From contig NZ_WUAG01000001.1 in assembly GCF_009828855.1 (NCBI RefSeq), positions 1,426,001 through 1,490,000 on the forward strand: a stretch of 64,000 nt of DNA, in the 5' to 3' direction. Below the pieces are notes generated by a model, which worked only from the letters and a program-made list of their open reading frames with translations, did no database searches and was not told where the DNA came from. Of the stretch, positions 16,856-34,761 are shown piece by piece. The stretch comes from Psychromonas sp. L1A2 (GTDB lineage: Bacteria; Pseudomonadota; Gammaproteobacteria; Enterobacterales; Psychromonadaceae). Every line of letters begins with the position of its first letter. The first letter of the stretch is position 1. The position numbers and the translations under genes are program-made.

Positions 16856-16983
16856 GAATGTTCTCAAATAGTTATGGAGAAATTAAAGAGCGCGGATTAT
16901 ACCTGCTCCCTTTATATAAGATAAGCAAAAATAAGTATAAGCAGAAATAAATGCCTTATTTCTCGTTGGAGTTTTGTGAGTAT

Positions 16984-17932
16984 TTAAAGTCAAAAGCAAT
17001 TAACCACGAAGGAATGAAGGGTAGAGAAGGTGAAGTCAAAAGAGCTAATGACTAAATTATATTGGTTTTCTTTCGTATCCTTAGTGAAGCGCAGCGCTTC
17101 GTGGTCGGCTGTGTTTTTTAAAATCAAAAGCAATTCACCACGAAGACACGAAGGGTAAAGAAGGTTAGGTCAAAAGCGTTAATGACCAACCATATTGTTT
17201 GTTATTGCTCTAGATGAAAATGTTTTGATCTTGGGACGCATGCTTCAGCTTGCATATGTTTATTATTTATTTTTCTTCGTGCCCTTCGTGGTCGACTGTG
17301 TTTTTTTAAAATCAAAAGCAATTAACCACGAAGGGTAGAGAAGGTTAAGTCAAAAGCGTTATTGGGTACATGTTTTGAAGCGAATTATCTTCTGACTCTA
17401 GGCACACGTTTTTATCTTTATTTTTCTTCGTGTCCTTCGTGAAGCGCAGCGCTTCGTGGTCGGCTGTGTTTTTTTAAAATCAAAAGCAATTAACTACGAA
17501 GACACGAAGGGTAGAGAAGATTAAGTCATAAGATCGTATCGCTATATGTTTTAGAAATTAGTTATCTTTGGAACTTGGGGCGTATGCTTCAGCTTGCATA
17601 TGTTTATTATTTATTTTTCTTCGTGTCCTTCGTGTAGCGCAGCGCTTCGTGGTCGGCTGTCTTTTTTAAAGTCAAAATCGATTAACCACGAAGATACGAA
17701 GGGTAGAGAAGATTAAGTCAAAAGATCGTATCGCTATATGTTTTAGAAATGAGTTGTCTTTTGAACTTGGGGCGCATGCTTTAGCCTGCTTGTTTTTACT
17801 GTTGTATTTCCTTTCACCGACTTGACGCTTGGATTCAAATAAGAAAGTAATGACATAACCTGTTTATTATTAAGTTTTCTTCGTGTAGCGCAGCGCTTCG
17901 TGGTTGCCCAATATTCTTTTAAATCCAAAGCA
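16984..17932. repeat. Array 1 of the CCACGAAG inverted-arm repeat family
   Basis: About five units. Each unit has a forward arm (TTAACCACGAAGACACGAAG), the trailer GGGTAGAGAAGGTTAAGTCA and a variable core. An inverted arm follows (CTTCGTGTCCTTCGTG, often extended by AGCGCAGCGCTTCGTGG), then a linker TTTTTAAAATCAAAAGC leading to the next unit. Forward arms lie near 17002, 17138, 17325, 17493 and 17684; inverted arms near 17078, 17273, 17425, 17618 and 17880. Three cores (near 17232, 17579 and 17769) carry a GCATGCTTCAGCTTGCATATG or GCATGCTTTAGCCTGC module resembling the second repeat family. Small open frames here are repeat artefacts. The array sits between divergent dusC and apt. Confidence 0.9.
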
Positions 17933-18156
17933 TATTATCAATATCTATTCCCGCTGCTTGTATAATCTTTAAGCTATGACTCACCATCTTTTTAGCCCTA
18001 AATAGAACTTCTTCAACTTCCAATACATCCACAAAAGTAAATCAGACGATTTTTCATGCAACAAATGAAAATAGTTACTCACTTTATGACAACACAACTT
18101 GCACTACGGCAAGCAACTATTTACCCTATGATATTAGATATTACAGGATAAAAAAG

Positions 18157-24661: not shown

Positions 24662-25297
24662 ATGCCAGAGAGCTTTTACAATAAAAATGCAAAGCAATTA
24701 GTAGAATTGTATTTATCAAAATCTTTTGAGCAGGTGCATCAACCATGGCTTGAATATCTAACACCCATCTTAAACAAACCCGATACCCGCATGTTAGATT
24801 TAGGGGCAGGCGCGGGGCGCGATAGTAAATATATGGCGCAACAAGGCGCTAGCAATAATATCTCAGTTACCGCGATAGAGCCTGCTGCAATGCTTGCCGA
24901 ACTAGGCAAACAACATACCCAAGGTTTAAACGTTCGTTGGTTGCAAGACTCCTTACCCGATTTAACCACAGTCACCAAACAAGAAGTCAGTTTTGACTTG
25001 ATCTTACTCAGTGCTGTCTGGATGCATATTCCCGAGACACAACGCTCACGTTCGTTACGAAAATTAGCCAACTTACTTAAACCCGGTGGAAAATTAGTTA
25101 TCTCATTGCGTCATGGCCCAAGTGGCGATGAACGTAATATGCTTGATGTGTGCAGTGACCAGTTACTACACATGAGTAAAGAGTTTGGATTATCTCCATT
25201 ATTGGTCACTGATAAAAATGCAGATGTTATTGGACGAGAGTCAGTAACATGGCAAACGGTGGTGTTGCATACCAATTTAGAATCTAAGAGTAGGTAA
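24662..25297 (+). CDS. Class I SAM-dependent methyltransferase
   Basis: A 211-residue stand-alone Rossmann methyltransferase. Motif I is MLDLGAGAGRDSKYMAQQGA (44-63), motif II acidic VTAIEPAAMLAELG, and the motif IV region is FDLILLSAVWMHIP, followed by LLKPGGKLVISLRHGP. No target-recognition domain is present, so a small molecule or protein substrate is more likely than DNA. The stop codon is five bases before the HNH nuclease gene, so the two are probably co-transcribed. Whether it belongs to the defence-like island or is an older chromosomal gene is unclear. Confidence 0.8.
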   Translation: MPESFYNKNAKQLVELYLSKSFEQVHQPWLEYLTPILNKPDTRMLDLGAGAGRDSKYMAQQGASNNISVTAIEPAAMLAELGKQHTQGLNVRWLQDSLPDLTTVTKQEVSFDLILLSAVWMHIPETQRSRSLRKLANLLKPGGKLVISLRHGPSGDERNMLDVCSDQLLHMSKEFGLSPLLVTDKNADVIGRESVTWQTVVLHTNLESKSR

Positions 25298-25302
25298 AAA
25301 TA

Positions 25303-26430
25303 ATGCCATTAGATTTTTATTTAGAAAAATTTCGGAATCTTAACACTAACTCTCGAGGTGGCCGAAATAGCCCTCATAAAGTTTGTATGTTGCTATCAGT
25401 AATGGATCTCATTCAAGCAGGACATATTCATTCAAATAAAATTCAATTAAATGATGTATTGAAAGAGCGATTTTCATTTCATTTTAATGAAAGAAAACAA
25501 GGTAATGATCAAGACAAACCAGAGACTCCCTTTTATCATTTACAAACAGAGGGGTTTTGGGGGCTAGCTTATAATAGTAATGTTGATTCTGAAAAGGTTA
25601 CTCGATATTCAGCAAAATCAATTTCACATGCCTACTTAGATGATAACTTATTTGAATATTTTAAAAGTAGTATTGTGAGTAATGACCTTAAAGATGCATT
25701 GCTTGAAAATTTATCTGATTTACCTACATTGTATGTTCAATGGATGTTAGACCTTGGGAAATCAAATAATACAATAAAAAAATATTTACAAGCAATCCAA
25801 GGCTCAATTACCAATTGGCTTATAGAGGCGAATGTTATTCAAGTTCCATTAACTAGTGTTAATTCATTTAGTAAATTTAACTTATTAGCTGAGCAAGCAA
25901 AGAATCTTGATAAGTTTAAAGTTATCGATGCACGTGGTCATGGGATGTATAAGGCAGCTTTAAATTCATATTTACAATTTTTAAAAGATTTAGCCCAATT
26001 AGATATTAAATCGGATATACAAAAAATTGTACAAGATAATAAACTCACGGCAACAGAAAGATCGATAATGATAAGTGCTCGAATAGGGCAAGGAACTTTT
26101 AGAAGGCAACTTATAGATATGTGGAAAGGTTGTGCTGTAACGGGTTATAAAAATTCTCAGTTATTAATGGCATCTCATATAAAGCCTTGGCATGTATCAA
26201 ACAATGAAGAGCGGCTTGATAAATATAATGGTTTATTATTATTAGCAAATTTAGATAAAGCATTTGATCTCGGTTTTATTTCATTTGCAAATACAGGTGA
26301 AATAATACTTTCAAAACATCTAGAAAAACCACAAGTATTAGGTCTAAAGGATGGAATGCGTTTCGATGTGCATAAAGGCCATATGAAGTATTTAGATCAT
26401 CATAGAAATGAATTATTTAAAGGATATTGA
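25303..26430 (+). CDS. HNH endonuclease, probable restriction nuclease
   Basis: A 375-residue predicted nuclease. The C-terminal HNH_2 domain (about 276-345) shows GCAVTGYKNSQLLMASHIKPW, then RLDKYNGLLLLANLDKAFDLGFISF, with the metal-binding His in SHIKPW and the conserved Asn in YNGLLLL. The N-terminal region (about 1-110) resembles the helical N-terminal domain of HNH restriction enzymes (KVCMLLSVMDLI). A middle segment around 145-160 (NTIKKYLQAIQGSITNWL) looks like a recombinase-type helical DNA-binding stretch, though this is only a resemblance. It is five bases downstream of a SAM methyltransferase and 89 bases upstream of a cytosine-5 DNA methyltransferase, so a restriction role is inferred. 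Confidence 0.82.
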   Translation: MPLDFYLEKFRNLNTNSRGGRNSPHKVCMLLSVMDLIQAGHIHSNKIQLNDVLKERFSFHFNERKQGNDQDKPETPFYHLQTEGFWGLAYNSNVDSEKVTRYSAKSISHAYLDDNLFEYFKSSIVSNDLKDALLENLSDLPTLYVQWMLDLGKSNNTIKKYLQAIQGSITNWLIEANVIQVPLTSVNSFSKFNLLAEQAKNLDKFKVIDARGHGMYKAALNSYLQFLKDLAQLDIKSDIQKIVQDNKLTATERSIMISARIGQGTFRRQLIDMWKGCAVTGYKNSQLLMASHIKPWHVSNNEERLDKYNGLLLLANLDKAFDLGFISFANTGEIILSKHLEKPQVLGLKDGMRFDVHKGHMKYLDHHRNELFKGY

Positions 26431-26519
26431 CCATCAATTATAACCAATATATTAAACTTCTAGGTTAAATAAAATGGAGGATATATAATCCGGCGCTAAC
26501 TAAAAAGGTGTTATGAACT

Positions 26520-27707
26520 ATGTCTACGAATTTAACAGCAATTGATCTCTTTGCAGGGGCTGGAGGTTTCTCGCTTGCCGCACAAAAACAAGGGTTTGAA
26601 TTATTAGCTGCAGTTGAATTTGATGATAAAGCTTCTAGCACTTATAGCCATAATTTAGTGGATAAAGTTGATGGAAGAACAAAAGTTTTCAATCAAGATA
26701 TTAACGACGTAGATGTTCATAGTTTAATGAAATATCAGAATATTAAACAGGGAGAGCTTGATTTATTACTTGGTGGGCCACCTTGCCAAGGTTTTTCTAC
26801 TCATAGGATTAAAGGTGCTGGGATTTCGGATCCCCGTAATCAATTGTTAATCAGATATTTTGATTTTGTAAAAGCATTATTACCTAAAGTGTTTCTTGTA
26901 GAAAATGTTCCTGGTCTTTTATGGAAAAGACATGAGGAACATCTTAATAAATTTTTAAACTTAGCTAAATCTCATGGTTATCAAGTTATTAATGATGCTC
27001 CGATTATTGTTAATGCAAAAGATCATGGTGTCCCTCAAAATAGAAAAAGAGCTTTTATTCTTGCTGTTCGAAAAGATATTTGCATTAAAAAATTAAAGTG
27101 GCCTCCTGTCGCGACTCACTTTGATCCTAGATTGAAAACTAAACCTCACTGGAAAACCGCATCAACTGTTTTTGAAACACCTCCTAAGGAAATTTTAGAT
27201 AAACTGAAAGAAAGACTGGTAGAAAAAAAAATATTTGAGAAAAGTAAGGCTGAAAAGGTTGTTAATGATCTTGAATTTGGTTCTCCTTTTTTAGCTAATG
27301 ATCCTTGTGACCTTCATATGAAACATACTTCAGAAGTAAGTGAACGCTTTAGGGAGACTCCGCTTAATGGTAGTCGAGAAGACATATCCTTTAGATTGAA
27401 ATGTCACAGTAAGGGTTACAGAGGCCATAAAGATGTTTATGGGCGGGTATTTTTTCATACACCATCAAATACTGTTACTACTGGCTGTAATAACCCTTCA
27501 AAAGGTCGATTTGTTCATCCTTGGTTAGATCATGGTATTACTTTAAGGCATGCAGCTAGGCTTCAAAGTTTTCCAGATGATTTTAATTTTTTAGGTTCAT
27601 CAACAGAAAGGGCGAGACAGATAGGTAATGCGGTTCCAATAAAACTTGGTAAATCGCTTATTAAAACAATTAAAAGTCAAATATTAGATACTACGTCTGA
27701 GATGTAG
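26520..27707 (+). CDS. DNA (cytosine-5) methyltransferase
   Basis: Transfers methyl groups to C5 of cytosine within a recognition site. Motif I is AIDLFAGAGGFSLAA near the N-terminus, motif IV is GGPPCQGFST with catalytic Cys89, motif VI VENVPGLL, motif VIII QNRKRAFILAV, and motifs IX-X are RHAARLQSFPDDF and IGNAVPIKLGKSL. The target-recognition region lies between about 190 and 310; specificity cannot be read. At 395 residues it is of normal length. It sits between the HNH nuclease and the GHKL ATPase gene on the same strand. An AAAAAGGTG ribosome site precedes ATG 26520. It probably protects host DNA from the island's nuclease (inference). Confidence 0.93.
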   Translation: MSTNLTAIDLFAGAGGFSLAAQKQGFELLAAVEFDDKASSTYSHNLVDKVDGRTKVFNQDINDVDVHSLMKYQNIKQGELDLLLGGPPCQGFSTHRIKGAGISDPRNQLLIRYFDFVKALLPKVFLVENVPGLLWKRHEEHLNKFLNLAKSHGYQVINDAPIIVNAKDHGVPQNRKRAFILAVRKDICIKKLKWPPVATHFDPRLKTKPHWKTASTVFETPPKEILDKLKERLVEKKIFEKSKAEKVVNDLEFGSPFLANDPCDLHMKHTSEVSERFRETPLNGSREDISFRLKCHSKGYRGHKDVYGRVFFHTPSNTVTTGCNNPSKGRFVHPWLDHGITLRHAARLQSFPDDFNFLGSSTERARQIGNAVPIKLGKSLIKTIKSQILDTTSEM

Positions 27708-27782
27708 ATAGCTTTATACTGGTATATTTATTTTATTAAAAAGCATATTATTCACATAGTTAGCTAATCACTAGGAAATAAT

Positions 27783-30752
27783 ATGCGCTCTTCTGTTTCT
27801 TTTCAAACCCGTGCAAGAACAATAGATCACTTAGGTCGCGAACAAATTGCTGATTGCCCAACAGCAATATCAGAACTATGGAAAAATGCATACGATGCAT
27901 ATGCCCAAAAAGTTGAGCTACATCTGTTTGATGGCGATATATCAGTTGCAGCATTAGTTGATGATGGTCATGGAATGAGTCGTGATGAATTCGAAAGTAA
28001 GTGGCTAACGATAGGTACCGAATCTAAAACCTCTGAATTTGAAATCGCATTGGATGACCGAAATGGTCTTCAGCATAGAGCTAAACAAGGTCAAAAAGGT
28101 ATTGGGCGTTTATCAAGTGCCGCCCTTGGCTCTCTACTTCTTATAGTATCCAAACGAACTGACCATAAGTTTGTTGCCGCGTTGATCGATTGGCGTTTGT
28201 TTGAAAATCCATACCTTCTATTACAAGATATTAGAATTCCTATTACTGACTTTGAACTTTGTCATAATCTAATCGATGAATTACCTAACTTATTTGATCA
28301 GTTAATGGGCAACGTTTGGGGTGATGGTGATGATGAAGGGCGAGACAAAAGATTAAACGAAGCTTGGAAGCGTTTTGAAGAACAAGAATCATTAGATGGT
28401 AAAGAAAAATCAACGAAAGATGAAATAGTTAATACGCTAATTAGTGATGTTTTTAGTGAAAGGCATTTTGATAAATGGCCATTATGGAATAATGATACAG
28501 TTCAAGGTACAGCTATGTTTATGGCTAATCTGAATGATGATTTAAAGTATCAATTATCTAAAACGCCTATAAAAGATGCAGATGGTGCTGAAATACTCGC
28601 TCGTGATCGGTTTTTTCAAACACTATCGAATTTCACTGACCCATTTTCAAAAGAGGACGAACCTCAATCATATGATTTTATAAATTCAGTTACTGCTTGG
28701 CACGGTAAATTCCCAAAAGCACTTATTGATGAAGCTCGAGAGTTTGATATCGCAACTCTTGAATCACTAGAACATGTCATAGAAGGTCATGTTGATGCAG
28801 ATGGATATTTTAAAGGTAGAGTTAAAGTATTTGGCGAATGGTATGAAAATTATTTAGTCAAACCAAAAGTACCATATAAAACACGTCGAGATTCAGCGTT
28901 CGGTGAGTTTCATATCAGGTTAGGCACTTTTGAACTTCAGATTGGGAGTACATCATTACCAGATAATCTACATTCAACTTACGTTGAACAAGCAGAAAAA
29001 TATGCAGGATTTCGTGTATATAGAGATGGTTTACGTGTCATGCCATATGGTCGAGTTGATAGTGATTATTTTGAAGTCGAATTTCGAAGATCTAAACATG
29101 CAGGTCGTTATTTTTGGGCTAATCGCCGCATGTTTGGTCGTATAGCTATAACGCGAGAAGGCAATCCTAATTTAAAAGATAAAGCAGGTCGTGAAGGGTT
29201 TATAGAAAATAAGGCTTCAAAACTATTTAGAGAGATAGTGGAAAATATTCTTCTTGATGTCGCAGATAAGCATTTAGGAACAAAGTCTCCAAATAGGAAA
29301 GAAACGATAAACGATATTAAAGAGCAAAAAGAAATTGTTAAAGCTGAAGCTGACCGTAAAACATTACAAACCAAAGAGCGTAAACGTATACGCTCTTCTA
29401 TAGATAAAAATTCAACGGCTCTAATAACTCATGTATCTAACATAAAAAATATTTACGATACATATTCGCAGAGAGAAAGCCTTAATAGTTTAGATGAATT
29501 ACAAAAGCTAAAAATTGAAATTGATATTTTAATTGATAAAACACGATCTTACTCTTTAACACCAATCCCAAATAACTTGGGTAGGCTTGAAGAAGATTAC
29601 AGAGCTTACCGTAAACAAGAACTACAAGCTAAAGAGTATACTAACGAACTTAGTTTCTTCATAAATAAAGCAATTTCTGAAGCAACAGAAAAAACAGATA
29701 CAGAGAAAGCACAAGAAGCTTACCGTAGTAAAGTTGCGAGTATAAATGCAAGTATTACTAAGTATGCAAGTGATGGTAAAGCTATGCTTGCAAAGCAAAC
29801 TGGTGAATTTGATTCGTTAATTAAAGAGTGCCGTGAGAGGTATAAAGCTACAACTTTTGAGTATTTAGAAGACCTAAAATTAGAAAAAATAACATTAAAT
29901 GAAGTACTTGATAAGCTCGACGAAGACCAAGAAAAGATTGTTATTGAAAATAGTCAAAAGCTAAGTCCGTATGTCACCGCTCTTACTTTGATAAATGAAC
30001 AAATAGATTTAGAGGGCTTAGCAATATATAGCATGAATGAAACGATGAAATATCGTCAGGAAATCAATCGCTTACATGCTTTGGCTCAATTGGGTATCAC
30101 AGTAGAAATTATCGGCCATGAAATAGAAGGTTTAGACATGACGATTTCAAGGGGGGTTAATTTAATTGCAAGTGGTGAGTTAAGTGATAGACAAAGGCAA
30201 TCATGTGACGATGTCATTGTTGCACAGCAGTCGTTAAGTGATAAATGGAGATTCCTTTCTCCCTTGAAATTATCAGGAGATAAAACAAGTAAACAAATAA
30301 GTGGTAAAGATATATTTTCTTATACCAATACTTTTTTTAAAGATCACTTCACAACTCAACAAATTAATTTTACGGCTACAAACGAGTTTTTGTCTTTATC
30401 AATTTGGGAAAAGCCTTCCAACATATATCCTGTTTTTATCAATTTAATAAATAACTCACAGTACTGGGTTGAGCGGAATGAAGTTACAGAAAAGCAAATT
30501 AATTTAGATGTAAGAGATCAAGAGGTTATTATTTCTGACTCTGGACCAGGTGTTGATAAAGATGATTTGGAGCAGTTATTTACCTTGTTTTTTACCCGTA
30601 AACAACGAGGTGGAAGAGGGATAGGTCTTTATCTTTGTAAACAAAACTTACAGGCTGGTGGGCATAAAATTCGTTACGAAACATTACCAGAAAATAAGAA
30701 ACTATTAGGGGCTAACTTTGCGATTGAATTTAAAGGAATGAATAATGCCTAA
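27783..30752 (+). CDS. Large protein with N-terminal GHKL ATPase and C-terminal histidine-kinase-like ATPase
   Basis: A 989-residue cytosolic protein with no transmembrane segment. The N-terminal GHKL (Hsp90/MutL/MORC-like) ATPase has N-box ELWKNAYDAY (31-40), DDGHGM (60-65) and GQKGIGRLSSAALG (about 102-115). A long middle region contains a predicted coiled coil rich in Glu and Lys (about 500-750). The C-terminal part resembles a histidine kinase: IIGHEIEGLDM with His779 in the position of an H-box, then N-box FINLINNSQYWVE (from 885), DSGPG (about 919) and the G2-type loop GGRGIGLYLCKQ (about 943). Two ATP-binding folds in one chain is unusual. The next gene, a receiver-domain protein, overlaps its end by eight bases, suggesting a phosphorelay-like pair. 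Role in an R-M-type defence is inferred from neighbours. Confidence 0.8.
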   Translation: MRSSVSFQTRARTIDHLGREQIADCPTAISELWKNAYDAYAQKVELHLFDGDISVAALVDDGHGMSRDEFESKWLTIGTESKTSEFEIALDDRNGLQHRAKQGQKGIGRLSSAALGSLLLIVSKRTDHKFVAALIDWRLFENPYLLLQDIRIPITDFELCHNLIDELPNLFDQLMGNVWGDGDDEGRDKRLNEAWKRFEEQESLDGKEKSTKDEIVNTLISDVFSERHFDKWPLWNNDTVQGTAMFMANLNDDLKYQLSKTPIKDADGAEILARDRFFQTLSNFTDPFSKEDEPQSYDFINSVTAWHGKFPKALIDEAREFDIATLESLEHVIEGHVDADGYFKGRVKVFGEWYENYLVKPKVPYKTRRDSAFGEFHIRLGTFELQIGSTSLPDNLHSTYVEQAEKYAGFRVYRDGLRVMPYGRVDSDYFEVEFRRSKHAGRYFWANRRMFGRIAITREGNPNLKDKAGREGFIENKASKLFREIVENILLDVADKHLGTKSPNRKETINDIKEQKEIVKAEADRKTLQTKERKRIRSSIDKNSTALITHVSNIKNIYDTYSQRESLNSLDELQKLKIEIDILIDKTRSYSLTPIPNNLGRLEEDYRAYRKQELQAKEYTNELSFFINKAISEATEKTDTEKAQEAYRSKVASINASITKYASDGKAMLAKQTGEFDSLIKECRERYKATTFEYLEDLKLEKITLNEVLDKLDEDQEKIVIENSQKLSPYVTALTLINEQIDLEGLAIYSMNETMKYRQEINRLHALAQLGITVEIIGHEIEGLDMTISRGVNLIASGELSDRQRQSCDDVIVAQQSLSDKWRFLSPLKLSGDKTSKQISGKDIFSYTNTFFKDHFTTQQINFTATNEFLSLSIWEKPSNIYPVFINLINNSQYWVERNEVTEKQINLDVRDQEVIISDSGPGVDKDDLEQLFTLFFTRKQRGGRGIGLYLCKQNLQAGGHKIRYETLPENKKLLGANFAIEFKGMNNA

Positions 30753-32649
30753 TGTAACTTTAAGCACTGTTGATACTTATTCAGATTTAATTCGAGAAGC
30801 GTTCGTTAAACCAATCCGTACTGTGACTGTTATCGACGATGAATATCCAACTCTTAATAGCTTTTTAAATGTTCAAAGTAACATGCAAGCAAAAGAAAAA
30901 ATAGGACCTGAACCATTAGAAAAACAGCTTAAAATTGAAAATATTGAGCGATTAAAGTCCATTATAGATATGTGTAACAATAACTATAAATGGAGTATCG
31001 ATGTATATGATGGGCAATCCCCTAAACTTGGTGAAAATAGTGTTCTACCTGAGCATATTAACCATAGTGATTTGCTTATTTTAGATTATCATTTAGATGG
31101 AGATTCATCTGAAGATGATGGTGGCCGTTCAAGAAAAATTTTAAAGGCATTAGCTAAGAATAATCACTTTAACCTCATATTGGTGCATACAAAAGGGGAT
31201 GATGACGATATTCAGGAAGTATACAATGATATTTTAACTGACTTTTTAAAATTACAAAAATTTGAACGTCTCGAAAACTCAGCTAAACAGAAAATTAACG
31301 AATGGCTTGATGAAGAAGATCCTGATTTTGAAAAATATAAATTTATTTCAGATAAAGTAGATGTAAAAAGTTTAGTTAAACTTTTAGCTTCTTCAGAGCC
31401 TAAAGAAATAACTCAGGTCAGAAATCCAAAACATTTTTTGTCTCCCAATACCTCAGAAATTAATGAAATAAGCAAAGGTACTGGTTTATCTGTTGAAGTT
31501 ATTGTGAATTGGATTATTTCAGAAAAAATAAAACCATATTCGGCTTTATTTGAAGGTGATGAATTTCATAATTTAGCTTGGGAATGGGATTTTGAAACAG
31601 AGGTGAATTATATTTCTACAGGTCGAATTTTTATATCTGTGATTAGAAAGAAAAATACAGACCCTGCGGTCAAGCTACATGAAAAACTTTGTACTGCACT
31701 CAATATGCAAAATGCATCACCAATGTTTTTATTAATGTTATTGATGCGAAGTGAACTAGATGATAAAGGGTTAGGTCAAGCTAGTGAAATAATTAAAAAT
31801 CGCTTTGCTCAAGCAGGGTGGATGTTTGATCTTTTAGCTAATTCTGATGGTGACCAGACTAAGCACTATGATGCAATAGATAGGCACTGGGAGCAGTTAT
31901 CTGTGGTTTCGAAGAATTCCTTAGTAGATTTTTCTAAACGTATAGTAAAAGCATTGAAAGCTACAAACCAGTCTGATAAAGATATTGTTAAATTGTATTT
32001 TCCTGAATGTATTAATCAAGAATTTAAAGCTTTAACTAATCTAAATGCTTATGCCTGTACTCGTTCTATTTCTTCTCATCATTTAACTACCGGAACTGTT
32101 TTTAATTTAGTTGATAATGGGAGGGACACATATTGGTTATGTTTAACCCCTGCTTGTGATTTGGTGCCTTCACAAAGTCAAAGGAAATGGTCTGAAAGAA
32201 TTGGTGATGATCATTTATCATTTCAAGCTATAAAATTGCAAAATGATGGTGAAAGTGATGGAACAATAAAAAGTGAAATTAATTCGAATGAGAGAGTTTT
32301 TATTTCAATTAATAATGAAATAGTTAGTTTTAAATTTAAAAAAGATAAAAATGCGAGCCCAATTTGGGAAACTTTTTATGCAGTGCAACATGGGAAGTTT
32401 GATGACGCTAATTGTTTTAAACTTCAACATCTTAGAATTGTAAAAGGTAAAACCATAAAGCTTAATAACAGAATAAAAAATAAAAAACAGCAAGTAGCAA
32501 CAGGACCGGATGAACTAAAATTAACGGCCCCAATTAAAGTCGAAGTCATTTCTGAACTACGTTATGAATATGCATTGAATCTATTACAAAAATTTGGAGC
32601 AAATCAAACGAGAGTTGGATTATCTTTTGTTGATAAGCTTTGGAGTTAA
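30745..32649 (+). CDS. Receiver-domain protein with long C-terminal region, partner of the GHKL protein
   Basis: A 634-residue protein. The N-terminal part looks like a divergent response-regulator receiver: VTVIDDEYP with acidic pair Asp31/Asp32, SDLLILDYHLDGD with candidate phospho-acceptor Asp114, and LILVHTKG with the conserved hydroxyl residue. The loop between strand 1 and the phospho-acceptor is long (about 80 residues), as in the Response_reg_2 type. The rest (about 190-634) has no domain I recognise; TPACDLVPSQSQRKW near 470 is a striking conserved-looking stretch. It overlaps the upstream GHKL/kinase-like gene by eight bases (AATAATGCCTAA), implying tight co-translation. A phosphotransfer from His779 of that protein to Asp114 is a testable inference. 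Confidence 0.75.
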   Translation: MPNVTLSTVDTYSDLIREAFVKPIRTVTVIDDEYPTLNSFLNVQSNMQAKEKIGPEPLEKQLKIENIERLKSIIDMCNNNYKWSIDVYDGQSPKLGENSVLPEHINHSDLLILDYHLDGDSSEDDGGRSRKILKALAKNNHFNLILVHTKGDDDDIQEVYNDILTDFLKLQKFERLENSAKQKINEWLDEEDPDFEKYKFISDKVDVKSLVKLLASSEPKEITQVRNPKHFLSPNTSEINEISKGTGLSVEVIVNWIISEKIKPYSALFEGDEFHNLAWEWDFETEVNYISTGRIFISVIRKKNTDPAVKLHEKLCTALNMQNASPMFLLMLLMRSELDDKGLGQASEIIKNRFAQAGWMFDLLANSDGDQTKHYDAIDRHWEQLSVVSKNSLVDFSKRIVKALKATNQSDKDIVKLYFPECINQEFKALTNLNAYACTRSISSHHLTTGTVFNLVDNGRDTYWLCLTPACDLVPSQSQRKWSERIGDDHLSFQAIKLQNDGESDGTIKSEINSNERVFISINNEIVSFKFKKDKNASPIWETFYAVQHGKFDDANCFKLQHLRIVKGKTIKLNNRIKNKKQQVATGPDELKLTAPIKVEVISELRYEYALNLLQKFGANQTRVGLSFVDKLWS

Positions 32650-33045
32650 TATAATAGTTATGAAGTGACTTTTTTAATTTGGCATTTTATAAATTTTTTA
32701 ATCCGAGACAGTCAAATATTTACAAAACTTAAGTTGTTGACTTAATATGCATCAATATATTATTGCTGTTTCAAATAAAGTTTTCTACAAGTGCAAAGCT
32801 GATATTATTTTATCTATTTCATTGAAGTGCGTTTATTGATAGATATAGGTATTTTGATTCCATTGGTGTAATCAAATAAATTGATTTATTGATCTGCCAT
32901 TTTAACTGTTAGTTATTTTACGTCAGATCAGTGATAGGTCTTAATATTCACATAATGAGGCAATTATTTATATTAATTATTCGCCTCATAACATGAATCG
33001 AATAAAGTTTCTATTTGCACTATTAAAGCAATAGGAAGGGGCGTT
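32650..33045. other. AT-rich gap after the receiver gene
   Basis: About 400 very AT-rich bases between the last intact island gene and a decayed Fic gene. No terminator, repeat or open frame could be supported. Confidence 0.4.
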
Positions 33046-33219
33046 ATGTGGCTCTTGAAACAAACTAACTAGCCAATTTCACTTGGGATGAAAAAACAAT
33101 CTTGCCTCTTTTACGTCAAGTGCAGTTACATCAAGGTATTTTACTTGGCAAAATGCGAACTCAGGAGAGCCATGACTTATCAATCGACCTGAATACATTT
33201 TTTAATACCTGCGGGTAAT
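33046..33219 (+). pseudogene. Remnant of a Fic-family (DUF4172) gene
   Basis: Reading from ATG 33046 gives MWLLKQTN and a TAG. One base out of frame the text continues NFTWDEKTILPLLRQVQLHQ and GILLGKM. This matches the N-terminus of Fic proteins with a DUF4172 domain, where MW...NWPNFTWD...LLPLL..V...QG.LLGKM is typical. A nonsense change plus a one-base loss have killed it, and the frame ends at 33219. The Fic catalytic domain is missing altogether. Intact relatives are AMPylating toxins or regulators. It lies just before the IS element. Confidence 0.7.
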
Positions 33220-33280
33220 ATCTCTTGGGTTTTTAAACATTATTTTTGAATCAATTTAATAACTTATTAGGGTATTCTGG

Positions 33281-34171
33281 TCAAGCCCAACCGGACACCT
33301 GACTTTGTAAATTTTCATAATTAATCGGTGTTAAATCACCAAGTGTAGTATGCAGTCTTTCATGGCTGTAATAACGGATATATTCTTCAATATCCATCTT
33401 CATTGCATCACGTGTTAAATGAACAACATTGAATAACCATTCATTCTTTAAACTGCCAAAAAATTGCTCTACAACCGCGTTATCTAAGCAAGCACCAACA
33501 CTACTAATCGATGCGGTTATTCTATATTTGTTCAATAACGCACTAAATCGTCCACTCGTATATTGAGAGCCTCGATCACTATGGAACATTAGGCCAGGTT
33601 TTGGTCGCTTAATATTAATCGCCATCTGTAATGCTCGCTCAACCAAATCAACGGTCATAGGTTTTGATATTGACCAGCCAACGATCCTACGTGAGTATAA
33701 GTCCATCACAATAGCTAAATACATCCAGCCTTGATTCGTTCTTATCACCTGCCCACACTAAGTTTGCTTGAGCAGGATTGAATTGCTGAGCCAGTAAGTT
33801 ATCTGCAATGCTATCACTGTGTTTCCGTTTGGTTGTTACTTTGTATGCTTGGCGTTGCTTAACAACGAATTTCAACTTACGCATGATGCTACGCGTACGG
33901 TGACGGCCGACTTTAAATCCTGCTAGTCTTAAGTTCTTACACAGTTGCCGCGAGCCTAAACTGCCACGACTACGTTTAAATAGCTGTCGTGCAGTACGGT
34001 ACATATTCAATTCTTCTTCACTGATAATTTTAGCCGGTCGTTCTAGCCAATCATAAAATGCACTGCGACTCACTTGCAGTACATTACAAAGTAGTTTTAT
34101 GGGATATTTAGAGCGATACGATCGAATATATCGAAACTTTACTTCATTTCTTTTGCGAAGAAGGCACTGGC
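33281..34171 (-). pseudogene. IS3-family transposase OrfB, frameshifted
   Basis: DDE integrase-type transposase. The first part (SRSAFYDWLERP, then the HTH_21 region and NLVWAGD) and the second part (RTNQGWMYLAIVMDLYSRR, FHSDRGSQYTS, VVEQFFGSLKNEW) lie in different frames, joined near 33755. Compared with the family text WxGDITYIRT, the DNA lacks about 11 bases (ITYI codons) right after the first catalytic Asp. The second Asp (HSD) and Glu (SLKNE) codons survive. Translation normally enters this frame by a -1 slip in orfA at 34172. The stop codon lies within the terminal repeat. The element cannot make a working transposase by itself. Confidence 0.85.
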
Positions 34172-34432
34172 CTTTTTTAGTATTTCTTTCTCCATTCGGA
34201 GGGTTTTAACTTCTTTTCTTAGCGCTAATAATTCAGTCCGTTCATCAGAATTTACGGTTGAATTTGCATGCTCTTCAACTTTTTGTTTCCAGCTGTAAAG
34301 TAGACTAGTCGTAATGCCCAATGCAGATGCAGCTTCTTGAACGGTATAACCTTGTTCACTGACCAACGCTAATGCTTCTGCTCTAAATTCTGTGGTATAA
34401 GTTTTGTACTGACGTTTTGTATTCATGTTCAC
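34139..34432 (-). CDS. IS3-family transposase OrfA
   Basis: A 97-residue helix-turn-helix protein that binds the ends of the IS. YTTEFRAEALALVSEQGYTV and AASALGITTSLLYSWKQKV form the HTH_8/transposase_8 domain, followed by a leucine-zipper-like coiled coil (LLALRKEVKTLRMEKEILKKA). Within the ILKK codons lies the A AAA AAG slippery sequence for making OrfAB. This frame is intact, but its partner orfB is broken. Confidence 0.9.
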   Translation of the reverse strand: MNMNTKRQYKTYTTEFRAEALALVSEQGYTVQEAASALGITTSLLYSWKQKVEEHANSTVNSDERTELLALRKEVKTLRMEKEILKKASAFFAKEMK

Positions 34433-34488
34433 CTCTATAGTGGATAGTATTATCCAAAATTAAAGTGTCCAGTTCAATTAGACCAGAA

Positions 34489-34692
34489 TACTACTTCGTT
34501 CATTACGATCCTAAACAATGCCGGAGTCTTACTGTTCGTGAGGCTGCTAGATTACAAACATTTCCTGATAACTATATTTTTGAAGGAAATAGAACAGAAC
34601 AATATGTTCAAGTAGGTAATGCAGTGCCACCTTTTTTGGCCCAACAGATTGGATGTGTTGTACTTAAGTTGCTTTGTAAAAGCATAGACTGA
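34489..34692 (+). pseudogene. 3' fragment of a second DNA (cytosine-5) methyltransferase
   Basis: The frame emerges from the IS right end and encodes YYFVHYDPKQCRSLTVREAA, then RLQTFPDNYIFEGNR, YVQVGNAVPPFLAQQIG and a stop. These are motifs IX and X of C5 methyltransferases. It is clearly different from the intact enzyme at 26520-27707 (IRHAARLQSFPDDF there). Motifs I-VIII are not found on the other side of the IS, so the 5' part has been deleted. It is the scar of an older restriction-modification system. Confidence 0.85.
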
Positions 34693-34761
34693 TTTCATTG
34701 TCATTTTCTAATTTTCTAATTTTCTAATTTTAAAATTTAGATTAGAGCATAATATTAAAAC

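What the first reader, a model, noticed from the sequence alone, without database searches (positions are those of the whole stretch)
25303..32649. HNH nuclease, C5 methyltransferase, dual-GHKL ATPase and receiver protein in one unit
Four same-strand genes combine the parts of a type II restriction-modification system with what looks like a soluble two-component pair. MORC/MutL-like GHKL ATPases are known in prokaryotic R-M operons, but a GHKL protein that also has a histidine-kinase-like end and overlaps a receiver-domain gene is not a layout I can name. Signal-controlled restriction is a possible function. AT-rich composition, the adjacent IS and the gene scraps mark it as an acquired island.
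Basis: partly seen in the sequence, partly recalled or inferred. Interest (0 to 1): 0.75.

Follow-up and report, generated by a model that had tools for sequence, protein, structure and literature searches.

The report
Methylase with DNA-clamp kinase and responder
Three of the four genes form a bacterial gene set that is already known but untested; it seems to mark the cell's own DNA, sense DNA with a clamp-shaped kinase and pass a phosphate to a responder with an unrecognised working end, probably as protection against viruses, while the fourth gene belongs to a neighbouring pair.

Summary
All four genes are real. The last three (C5 methyltransferase, GHKL protein, receiver protein) form a conserved triad, published in 2021 as HEF_HK/Response_reg_2 beside C5 methyltransferases (PMC8011034). 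In 95 loci, the receiver gene follows the kinase gene in 94 and a C5 methyltransferase lies within five genes in 91. The HNH gene is not core: in two sister species it follows the 211-aa SAM methyltransferase gene, and those genomes lack the receiver domain; HNH or type IV-like nucleases are occasional neighbours. New here: (1) the GHKL protein is predicted as a MORC/Hsp90-type ATPase joined to a histidine-kinase core, with conserved ATP sites and phospho-histidine; (2) the receiver protein ends in an unrecognised domain with an invariant Cys, seen only in triads in the 9 of 10 other matching genomes checked; (3) the methyltransferase's recognition region is more conserved than in controls, suggesting one shared target; (4) the site is a defence hotspot holding DSR2, MZA or a type IV enzyme in sister species. 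Best reading: a methylation-guarded, phosphorelay-triggered anti-phage system; function untested.

The parts
24662..25297 (+). 211-aa SAM-dependent methyltransferase (not a DNA C5 enzyme); partner of the HNH gene, not of the triad
   Evidence: Methyltransf_25 56.1 bits; same gene followed by the HNH gene in sister genomes G388 and G391
25303..26430 (+). 375-aa HNH_2 nuclease; accessory neighbour of the triad
   Evidence: PF13391 37.4 bits; NCBIfam PT-DNA-binding restriction endonuclease 61 bits, far under its 180 cut-off
26520..27707 (+). 395-aa DNA cytosine-C5 methyltransferase, first gene of the triad; PCQ and ENV motifs present
   Evidence: PF00145 214.6 bits; motifs; adjacency
27102..27530 (+). 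target-recognition region of the methyltransferase (residues 195-337, limits chosen by me between motifs VIII and IX), unusually conserved among triads
27783..30752 (+). 989-aa MORC/Hsp90-like GHKL ATPase fused to a histidine-kinase core
   Evidence: Pfam, AF2 model pLDDT 84, Foldseek hits to MORC2-DNA, Hsp90, CpxA, HK853
27861..28193 (+). N-terminal GHKL ATPase domain HATPase_c_3 (residues 27-137); E31, N35, D38, D60, G62, G64, G103, G106, G108
   Evidence: each conserved in 90 or 91 of 91
30087..30269 (+). HEF_HK dimerisation/phospho-histidine domain (residues 769-829); H779 codon at 30117-30119
   Evidence: PF19191 24.0 bits; H779 in 91 of 91
30417..30689 (+). C-terminal kinase ATPase domain HATPase_c (residues 879-969); N891, G921, G944/946/948
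   Evidence: PF02518 54.8 bits; each 91 of 91
30745..32649 (+). 634-aa receiver protein, third gene of the triad; D31/D32, phospho-acceptor D114 (31084-31086), T149, K302 (31648-31650)
   Evidence: PF19192 61.7 bits; D114 in 92 of 92, K302 in 91 of 92; AF2 pLDDT 90
32020..32646 (+). unrecognised C-terminal domain of the receiver protein (residues 426-634) with G450, C466, P469, C471, D472, R623
   Evidence: C471, G450 and R623 in 92 of 92; no Pfam family over chance, no PDB sequence, no structure match at E<=0.001
33272..34491 (-). degenerate IS3-type element downstream (neighbour, not part of the system)
   Evidence: rve, HTH_21, HTH_Tnp_1 pieces; 35-nt inverted ends, 74% complementary
34492..34653 (+). 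remnant of another C5 methyltransferase (C-terminal motifs), abutting the IS end
   Evidence: PF00145 55.9 bits; translation; G380 alignment starts at 34492

Best explanation
The core is a three-gene, mobile, probably anti-phage unit. The C5 methyltransferase marks one fixed DNA target on the host genome (inferred from its conserved recognition region). The 989-aa protein is a MORC/Hsp90-like ATP-driven clamp (fold by prediction) that engages DNA lacking the mark or otherwise foreign DNA (inferred). Clamp closure is passed through the long helical region to the histidine-kinase core, which autophosphorylates H779 and hands the phosphate to D114 of the receiver protein (residues shown to be intact and conserved; reaction inferred). 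Phosphorylation frees the receiver protein's C-terminal Cys-x-x-Pro-x-Cys-Asp ... Arg domain, an effector of unknown chemistry that would damage foreign DNA or stop the infected cell (inferred). Separate nucleases (HNH, AspBHI-like, Mrr-like) and Vsr are optional neighbours. It works like a two-component system with a DNA-clamp input and a dedicated effector output.
For: Triad conserved: receiver next to kinase in 94 of 95 loci, C5 methyltransferase within five genes in 91 of 95. Protein distances correlate over 79 loci (HK-RR 0.93, HK-MT 0.63, RR-MT 0.57). Both ATP sites and H779 conserved in 90-91 of 91; D114 in 92 of 92. Foldseek: MORC2 with DNA (E 2.7e-8), MORC3, GRP94/Hsp90 and CpxA/HK853. 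Recognition region 0.22-0.28 identical against 0.06-0.09 in controls at core identity 0.25-0.40. Same chromosomal slot holds DSR2, MZA or a type IV enzyme in sister species; 12 loci from viral contigs.
Against: No activity has been tested, here or in papers found. Shared inheritance may reflect host history. Two intact-context loci differ or lack the methyltransferase (L044 none within five genes; L076 none upstream, contig ends downstream). One E. coli locus keeps a kinase C-terminal half and receiver gene without the methyltransferase (IS3-truncated). The recognition-region gap closes for close pairs (0.64 against 0.59 at core identity 0.6-0.8). The kinase model has pTM 0.65, so domain arrangement is uncertain. 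The receiver C-terminal domain has no recognised relative, so 'effector' is inference.
Confidence: 0.5

Rival explanations
1. The kinase/receiver pair is a regulator that switches expression or activity of an associated restriction-modification system (the speculation of the 2021 paper and, in essence, of the first reader).
For: Two-component residues are intact; R-M genes are enriched nearby in PMC8011034; type IV-like or HNH nucleases sit beside some triads.
Against: No DNA-binding output domain recognised in the receiver protein; few separate nucleases among immediate neighbours; the receiver C-terminal domain is found only in triads where checked.
Confidence: 0.2
2. The set is a repair or epigenetic-maintenance system: the MutL/MORC-like protein acts with the methyltransferase and Vsr on methylation-linked lesions rather than in defence.
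For: Vsr is the commonest neighbour: 16 of 78 downstream and 7 of 80 upstream neighbours; MutL/Vsr parallels are drawn in PMC2292703.
Against: Vsr is absent from most immediate neighbours; the receiver domain is patchy (over cut-off in 4 of 369 class genomes) and lies in viral contigs and a defence hotspot.
Confidence: 0.12
3. The four genes are one type II restriction-modification unit with the HNH protein as its nuclease.
For: Same strand, gap of 89 bp to the methyltransferase; HNH_2 is the best-represented nuclease domain near these receivers in PMC8011034; HNH_2 in 3 of 78 downstream neighbours; a PT-DNA-binding HNH enzyme follows the triad in E. coli Eco889.
Against: In G388 and G391 the HNH gene follows the SAM methyltransferase gene with 1-nt overlap, and those genomes have no Response_reg_2 match; HNH relatives in 6 of 101 loci, beside the methyltransferase only in the window.
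Confidence: 0.08
4. Variant of the best explanation: the receiver's C-terminal domain is a MazF/PemK-like ribonuclease released by phosphorylation.
For: MazF 1ub4 (probability 0.89, TM 0.59 by target) and viral PemK-type proteins (0.57 and 0.60) among weak structure hits.
Against: E-values 0.2-0.9; profile comparison with 30 PemK sequences gives probability 1.1 % and score 15.8, inside the range of 60 column-shuffled controls (highest 19.0).
Confidence: 0.08

Closest known systems
HEF_HK / Response_reg_2 two-component-like element (Bellieny-Rabelo et al. 2021, PMC8011034; parts 1-5 of 7 read)
   Same: Same two domain families, same domain order in the kinase, same linkage, same C5 methyltransferase neighbour, HNH_2 and Vsr as neighbours.
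   Different: Nothing places this member outside the family. Added here: three-gene core with the methyltransferase, MORC/Hsp90 fold match, conserved recognition region, the receiver's unrecognised C-terminal domain, the hotspot.
MORC / paraMORC GHKL ATPases in R-M operons (Iyer et al. 2008, PMC2292703; parts 1-2 of 4 read)
   Same: N-terminal GHKL ATPase with further domain matching MORC2/MORC3 and Hsp90 structures, next to C5 methyltransferase and Vsr genes.
   Different: Carries a complete histidine-kinase core at its C-terminus and a receiver partner; no helicase gene in the triad.
VcSduA, Shedu protein with GHKL N-terminus (PMC12137116, passages only)
   Same: GHKL ATPase domain proposed to control an attached defence effector; phage protection shown there.
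   Different: Its effector is a fused PD-(D/E)xK nuclease; no kinase, receiver or methyltransferase.
MZA system (name from PADLOC; its make-up and phage defence are recalled)
   Same: A C5 methyltransferase lies beside MzaB-E, at the corresponding slot in G380.
   Different: No Mza model matched the triad's proteins at E<=1 in PADLOC (the methyltransferase list was cut at 25 of 65).
Detocs defensive two-component system (recalled; only a search listing that counts the word was seen)
   Same: Phosphorelay with a response regulator carrying an effector (recalled).
   Different: Not compared by sequence; no methyltransferase is part of it (recalled).

Membership tests
HEF_HK/Response_reg_2 element | HATPase_c_3 + HEF_HK + HATPase_c in one protein | tested here: met
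   HEF_HK at 24.0 bits is just under its 24.1 cut-off, but H779 aligns in 91 of 91
HEF_HK/Response_reg_2 element | Adjacent Response_reg_2 gene with conserved Asp | tested here: met
   61.7 bits; D114 92 of 92; 8-nt overlap
HEF_HK/Response_reg_2 element | C5 methyltransferase in the neighbourhood | tested here: met
   26520-27707; 91 of 95 related loci
MORC/paraMORC ATPase | GHKL ATP-binding motifs | tested here: met
MORC/paraMORC ATPase | S5-type domain after the GHKL domain | tested here: inconclusive
   Foldseek aligns about 530 columns to MORC2, MORC3 and Hsp90, more than the ATPase domain alone, but prints no ranges
MORC/paraMORC ATPase | MORC-specific GhXhhpXXRhl motif | not tested
   motif named in PMC2292703; not scanned
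Two-component system | Histidine-kinase core and receiver with intact active residues | tested here: met
   kinase fold
Two-component system | Phosphotransfer from kinase to receiver | not testable with these tools
   needs biochemistry
Type II restriction-modification system | DNA methyltransferase | tested here: met
   PF00145, catalytic motifs
Type II restriction-modification system | Cognate restriction endonuclease as constant partner | tested here: not met
   HNH relatives in 6 of 101 loci, beside the methyltransferase only in the window; no nuclease domain recognised in kinase or receiver
MazF/PemK toxin (receiver C-terminus) | Sequence-profile similarity to PF02452 | tested here: not met
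   hhalign within shuffled range; no PemK hit in any of 89 members
Detocs | Homologous DtcA/B/C proteins | not tested
   no PADLOC model of any system matched the receiver protein at E<=1; no direct comparison made

The most novel reading that the evidence does not exclude
A self-contained defence machine without a classical nuclease: one methyltransferase with the same target across phyla guards the host; a MORC-like clamp fused to a histidine kinase reads the unguarded target on invading DNA; and a phosphate, not direct contact, releases an effector of a new enzyme class (the receiver's Cys-x-x-Pro-x-Cys-Asp ... Arg domain). It would be a restriction-like system in which recognition and killing are linked by a phosphorelay.
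Probability: 0.3. Interest if true: 0.85.

Novelty: new member of a known kind. Interest (0 to 1): 0.55.

Why it matters
MORC proteins are chromatin regulators in animals and plants, and how their ATP-driven clamp is coupled to an output is still poorly understood (recalled). Here a MORC-type ATPase appears to be wired to a histidine kinase, so clamp state would become a measurable phosphate. If the triad defends against phages, it would be a restriction-like system triggered by a phosphorelay with an effector domain of unknown chemistry. Near-identical triads occur in 205 of 5,426 complete E. coli genomes, which makes the family easy to study in laboratory strains.

Tried and rejected
HNH as core member: rejected on synteny. 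MazF/PemK homology of the receiver C-terminus: suggested by weak structure hits, not supported by profile comparison. Weak zf_CopZ hits in 7 of 89 C-terminal domains (best E 0.0076) were taken as chance from the cysteines. The first genome-contig scan, with the receiver protein alone, found nothing; the scan with the kinase alignment worked. A first PemK comparison was spoiled because minus-strand loci were read on the wrong strand; it was repeated correctly. The methylation target could not be named: the best PDB matches of the methyltransferase cover mainly its catalytic half.

Rows dropped before counts: 6 redundant loci (L021, L026, L092, L094, L105, L110) before the 95-locus tally; two further near-duplicates in the kinase (L037, L091) were kept. 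The 92-row receiver set omits 5 redundant and 3 short rows; the 92-row kinase set omits 8 redundant and 1 short row, and alignment A5 omits one more (L045, cut at a contig end). The distance test used 79 loci with an adjacent methyltransferase of at least 340 aa. The genome contigs listing holds the best 80 of 475 relatives, so the tally leans to close relatives of the window. Of 11 genomes matching the C-terminal domain one (G491, two fragment hits) was not examined in context. The neighbour scans used 78 of 90 downstream and 80 of 92 upstream neighbours (not C5 methyltransferases, within 700 bp, at least 90 aa; two listed downstream ones, the window's IS piece among them, also fell away).
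Full report
What is in the window. The third protein has HATPase_c_3 at residues 27-137, HEF_HK at 769-829 and HATPase_c at 879-969; the fourth has Response_reg_2 at 24-185. Their genes overlap by 8 nt. GC is 0.30-0.36 across 25-33 kb. Downstream lies a degenerate IS3-type element and directly beyond it a remnant of another C5 methyltransferase at 34492-34653. The receiver protein has one match in its own genome, itself.

Prior art. The pair was described in 2021 (PMC8011034; parts 1-5 of 7 read): 91.6 % linkage in 644 regions, C5 methyltransferases often upstream, HNH_2 the best-represented nuclease domain, Vsr often downstream, HATPase_c_3+HEF_HK+HATPase_c in 174 of 222 proteins, and a suggested link to paraMORC ATPases; in the parts read it is comparative and predictive. 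In the held library two other papers matched its reference; by title and abstract start neither tests it. A 2026 paper on defence prediction names HATPase and REC in the legend of a figure of predicted, not validated systems (PMC13092281, passages only); I cannot tell whether it is this set. My searches found no phage test of the set; subscription papers and preprints are mostly not in that library.

The core is three genes. Loci came mainly from searches with the kinase alone: 80 from species genomes (the best of 475 relatives) and 12 from viral contigs. With the window that is 101 loci; 95 remain after removing six redundant ones. The receiver gene is the next gene in 94; the exception, L072, ends at a contig edge. 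A C5 methyltransferase is immediately upstream in 72, immediately downstream of the receiver on the same strand in 10, downstream on the other strand in 3, elsewhere within five genes in 6, and not seen in 4 (L044, L045, L072, L076), three of which are cut by a contig end. A search with the receiver's C-terminal domain in 398 genomes of the phylum hit 11 genomes: the window's own, nine whose context I looked at, all triads, and one not looked at (G406). Distances of the three proteins correlate over 79 loci (HK-RR 0.93, HK-MT 0.63, RR-MT 0.57, p 0.001 each), which shows shared inheritance but does not separate it from shared host history.

The HNH gene is a neighbour. Relatives of this HNH protein turned up in 6 of 101 loci, beside the methyltransferase only in the window. 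In sister genome G388 the same chromosomal site, aligned on both sides, has the SAM methyltransferase (96 % identical over residues 1-203), then this HNH family with 1-nt overlap, then a 221-aa ORF and a 1203-aa protein, then the rplQ side. G391 has the same SAM-HNH pair; neither genome has a Response_reg_2 match. In six other sister genomes the SAM methyltransferase is part of a 581-596-aa ORF; the two scanned both end in HNH_4. So the HNH gene's usual partner is the methyltransferase at 24662-25297. Against a strict separation: HNH_2 genes recur near triads (3 of 78 downstream neighbours), a PT-DNA-binding HNH enzyme follows the triad in E. coli Eco889, and in L019 and L056 the gene upstream of the methyltransferase is AspBHI-like. 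Type IV-like nucleases are therefore occasional accessories.

The kinase protein. The AF2 model (pLDDT 84, pTM 0.65) matches two groups of solved structures at E about 1e-9 to 1e-7: histidine-kinase cores (CpxA, HK853, ZraS; about 250 columns) and MORC2 with DNA, MORC3, GRP94 and Hsp90 (about 530 columns; TM by target 0.35-0.49). I assign the first to the C-terminus and the second to the N-terminus from the Pfam positions, since the output prints no ranges. The ATP-site residues listed in the parts table and H779 are conserved in 90-91 of 91 sequences. The N-terminal domain also resembles BbrUII/HgiDII-type restriction enzymes weakly (64 bits, cut-off 550).

The receiver protein. The AF2 model is confident (pLDDT 90) but has no structure match at E<=0.001 and no PDB sequence match. 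D31 and D114 are conserved in 92 of 92, T149 in 89 and K302 in 91. A predicted strand (295-301) precedes K302, so I infer that the receiver's fifth strand and Lys lie about 110 residues beyond the end of the Pfam match, after a helical insert. The C-terminal domain has G450, C471 and R623 in 92 of 92 and C466, P469 and D472 in 85-89. MazF/PemK folds appear among weak structure hits, but profile comparison is no better than shuffled controls, so I do not claim it.

The methyltransferase. At catalytic-core identity 0.25-0.30, 0.30-0.35 and 0.35-0.40 the median recognition-region identity is 0.22, 0.26 and 0.28 among 79 triad enzymes and 0.06, 0.08 and 0.09 among 28 controls from the class; at 0.45-0.50 it is 0.35 against 0.11 and at 0.50-0.60 it is 0.55 against 0.30, while at 0.60-0.80 the difference is nearly gone (0.64 against 0.59). 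Pairs are not independent and indels lower the control values. I infer that triads probably methylate the same or nearly the same site, unlike ordinary R-M families, whose recognition regions diversify (general knowledge). The motif could not be read from sequence.

Context. Response_reg_2 is over its cut-off in 4 of 369 class genomes and 3 of 99 relatives, the window's own counted in both. A FastTree tree of 72 kinases needs 17 class changes (least possible 9, shuffled mean 30), so the label is clustered but not clean; this fits transfer without proving it. Loci sit in viral contigs, directly after a phage gene A (L103), beside integrases (L054, L064) and near a MobH relaxase gene. At the window's site sister species carry DSR2 (1183 bits, G388), MzaB-E plus a C5 methyltransferase (G380) or a type IV enzyme (757 bits, G371); G388 matches the window on both sides, G380 and G371 share the SAM gene and the rplQ side. 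This looks like a defence hotspot with the triad as one occupant. In E. coli 205 of 5,426 complete genomes carry one near-identical triad over at least 80 % of its length and 7 another. A further 774 match the Citrobacter kinase gene in part, none over 80 %; the one of these that I opened among the 62 %-coverage rows is an IS3-truncated kinase with a receiver gene and no methyltransferase.

Mechanism. Shown: gene set, co-inheritance, intact residues, predicted folds, conserved recognition region, hotspot. Inferred: DNA sensing, phosphotransfer, effector release, anti-phage role. The strongest rivals are regulation of an R-M system and a repair or epigenetic role with Vsr (16 of 78 downstream and 7 of 80 upstream neighbours).

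Verdict. The finding is real and worth testing, but the layout is published, so the novelty is 'new member of a known kind'. The open and interesting parts are the unrecognised C-terminal domain, the clamp-kinase fusion and the probably fixed methylation target.

Noticed in passing
24662-26430; L187 9874-11639; L192 4526-6291: A SAM methyltransferase followed by an HNH nuclease looks like a two-gene unit of its own; in six other sister genomes the methyltransferase is part of a 581-596-aa ORF, and the two scanned end in an HNH_4 domain. Possible separate defence pair.
   Followed up: partly
24662-34760; L187, L188, L189: The slot before the rplQ-rpoA operon is a defence hotspot: DSR2 in G388, MzaB-E plus C5 methyltransferase in G380, type IV enzyme in G371.
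   Followed up: partly
33272-34653: The IS3-type element abuts a C5-methyltransferase remnant; sister genome G380 has an intact C5 methyltransferase at the matching place, so an earlier R-M occupant was probably lost here.
   Followed up: partly
L228 5804-10586 (E. coli KSC1031): IS3 stands where the kinase N-terminus and methyltransferase would be, leaving a 572-aa kinase remnant plus receiver gene. PHROG 8137 is also 572 positions long and matches this half, so part of the published architecture without HATPase_c_3 may be decayed copies.
   Followed up: no
window receiver protein residues 186-302: The Response_reg_2 Pfam match seems to end before the receiver's last strand and Lys; K302 (91 of 92) is the better candidate for the canonical Lys.
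   Followed up: partly
L162 (MT837790.1, 6.2-kb phage record from human faeces): Three back-to-back ORFs of 422, 753 and 446 aa; the middle one matches the kinase profile, the third does not match the receiver profile. Possibly a relative with another effector.
   Followed up: no
16983-17937 (TRF array 17417-17789, period 192): A repeat-rich stretch upstream of dnaX, with many cross-matches to the same stretch in sister genome G388.
   Followed up: no
G000:C1:1846367-1846972 and 1851189-1851446 (own genome, outside the window): A second copy of the SAM methyltransferase (76 % identical, in a longer frame) with an HNH-like frame about 4 kb further on.
   Followed up: no
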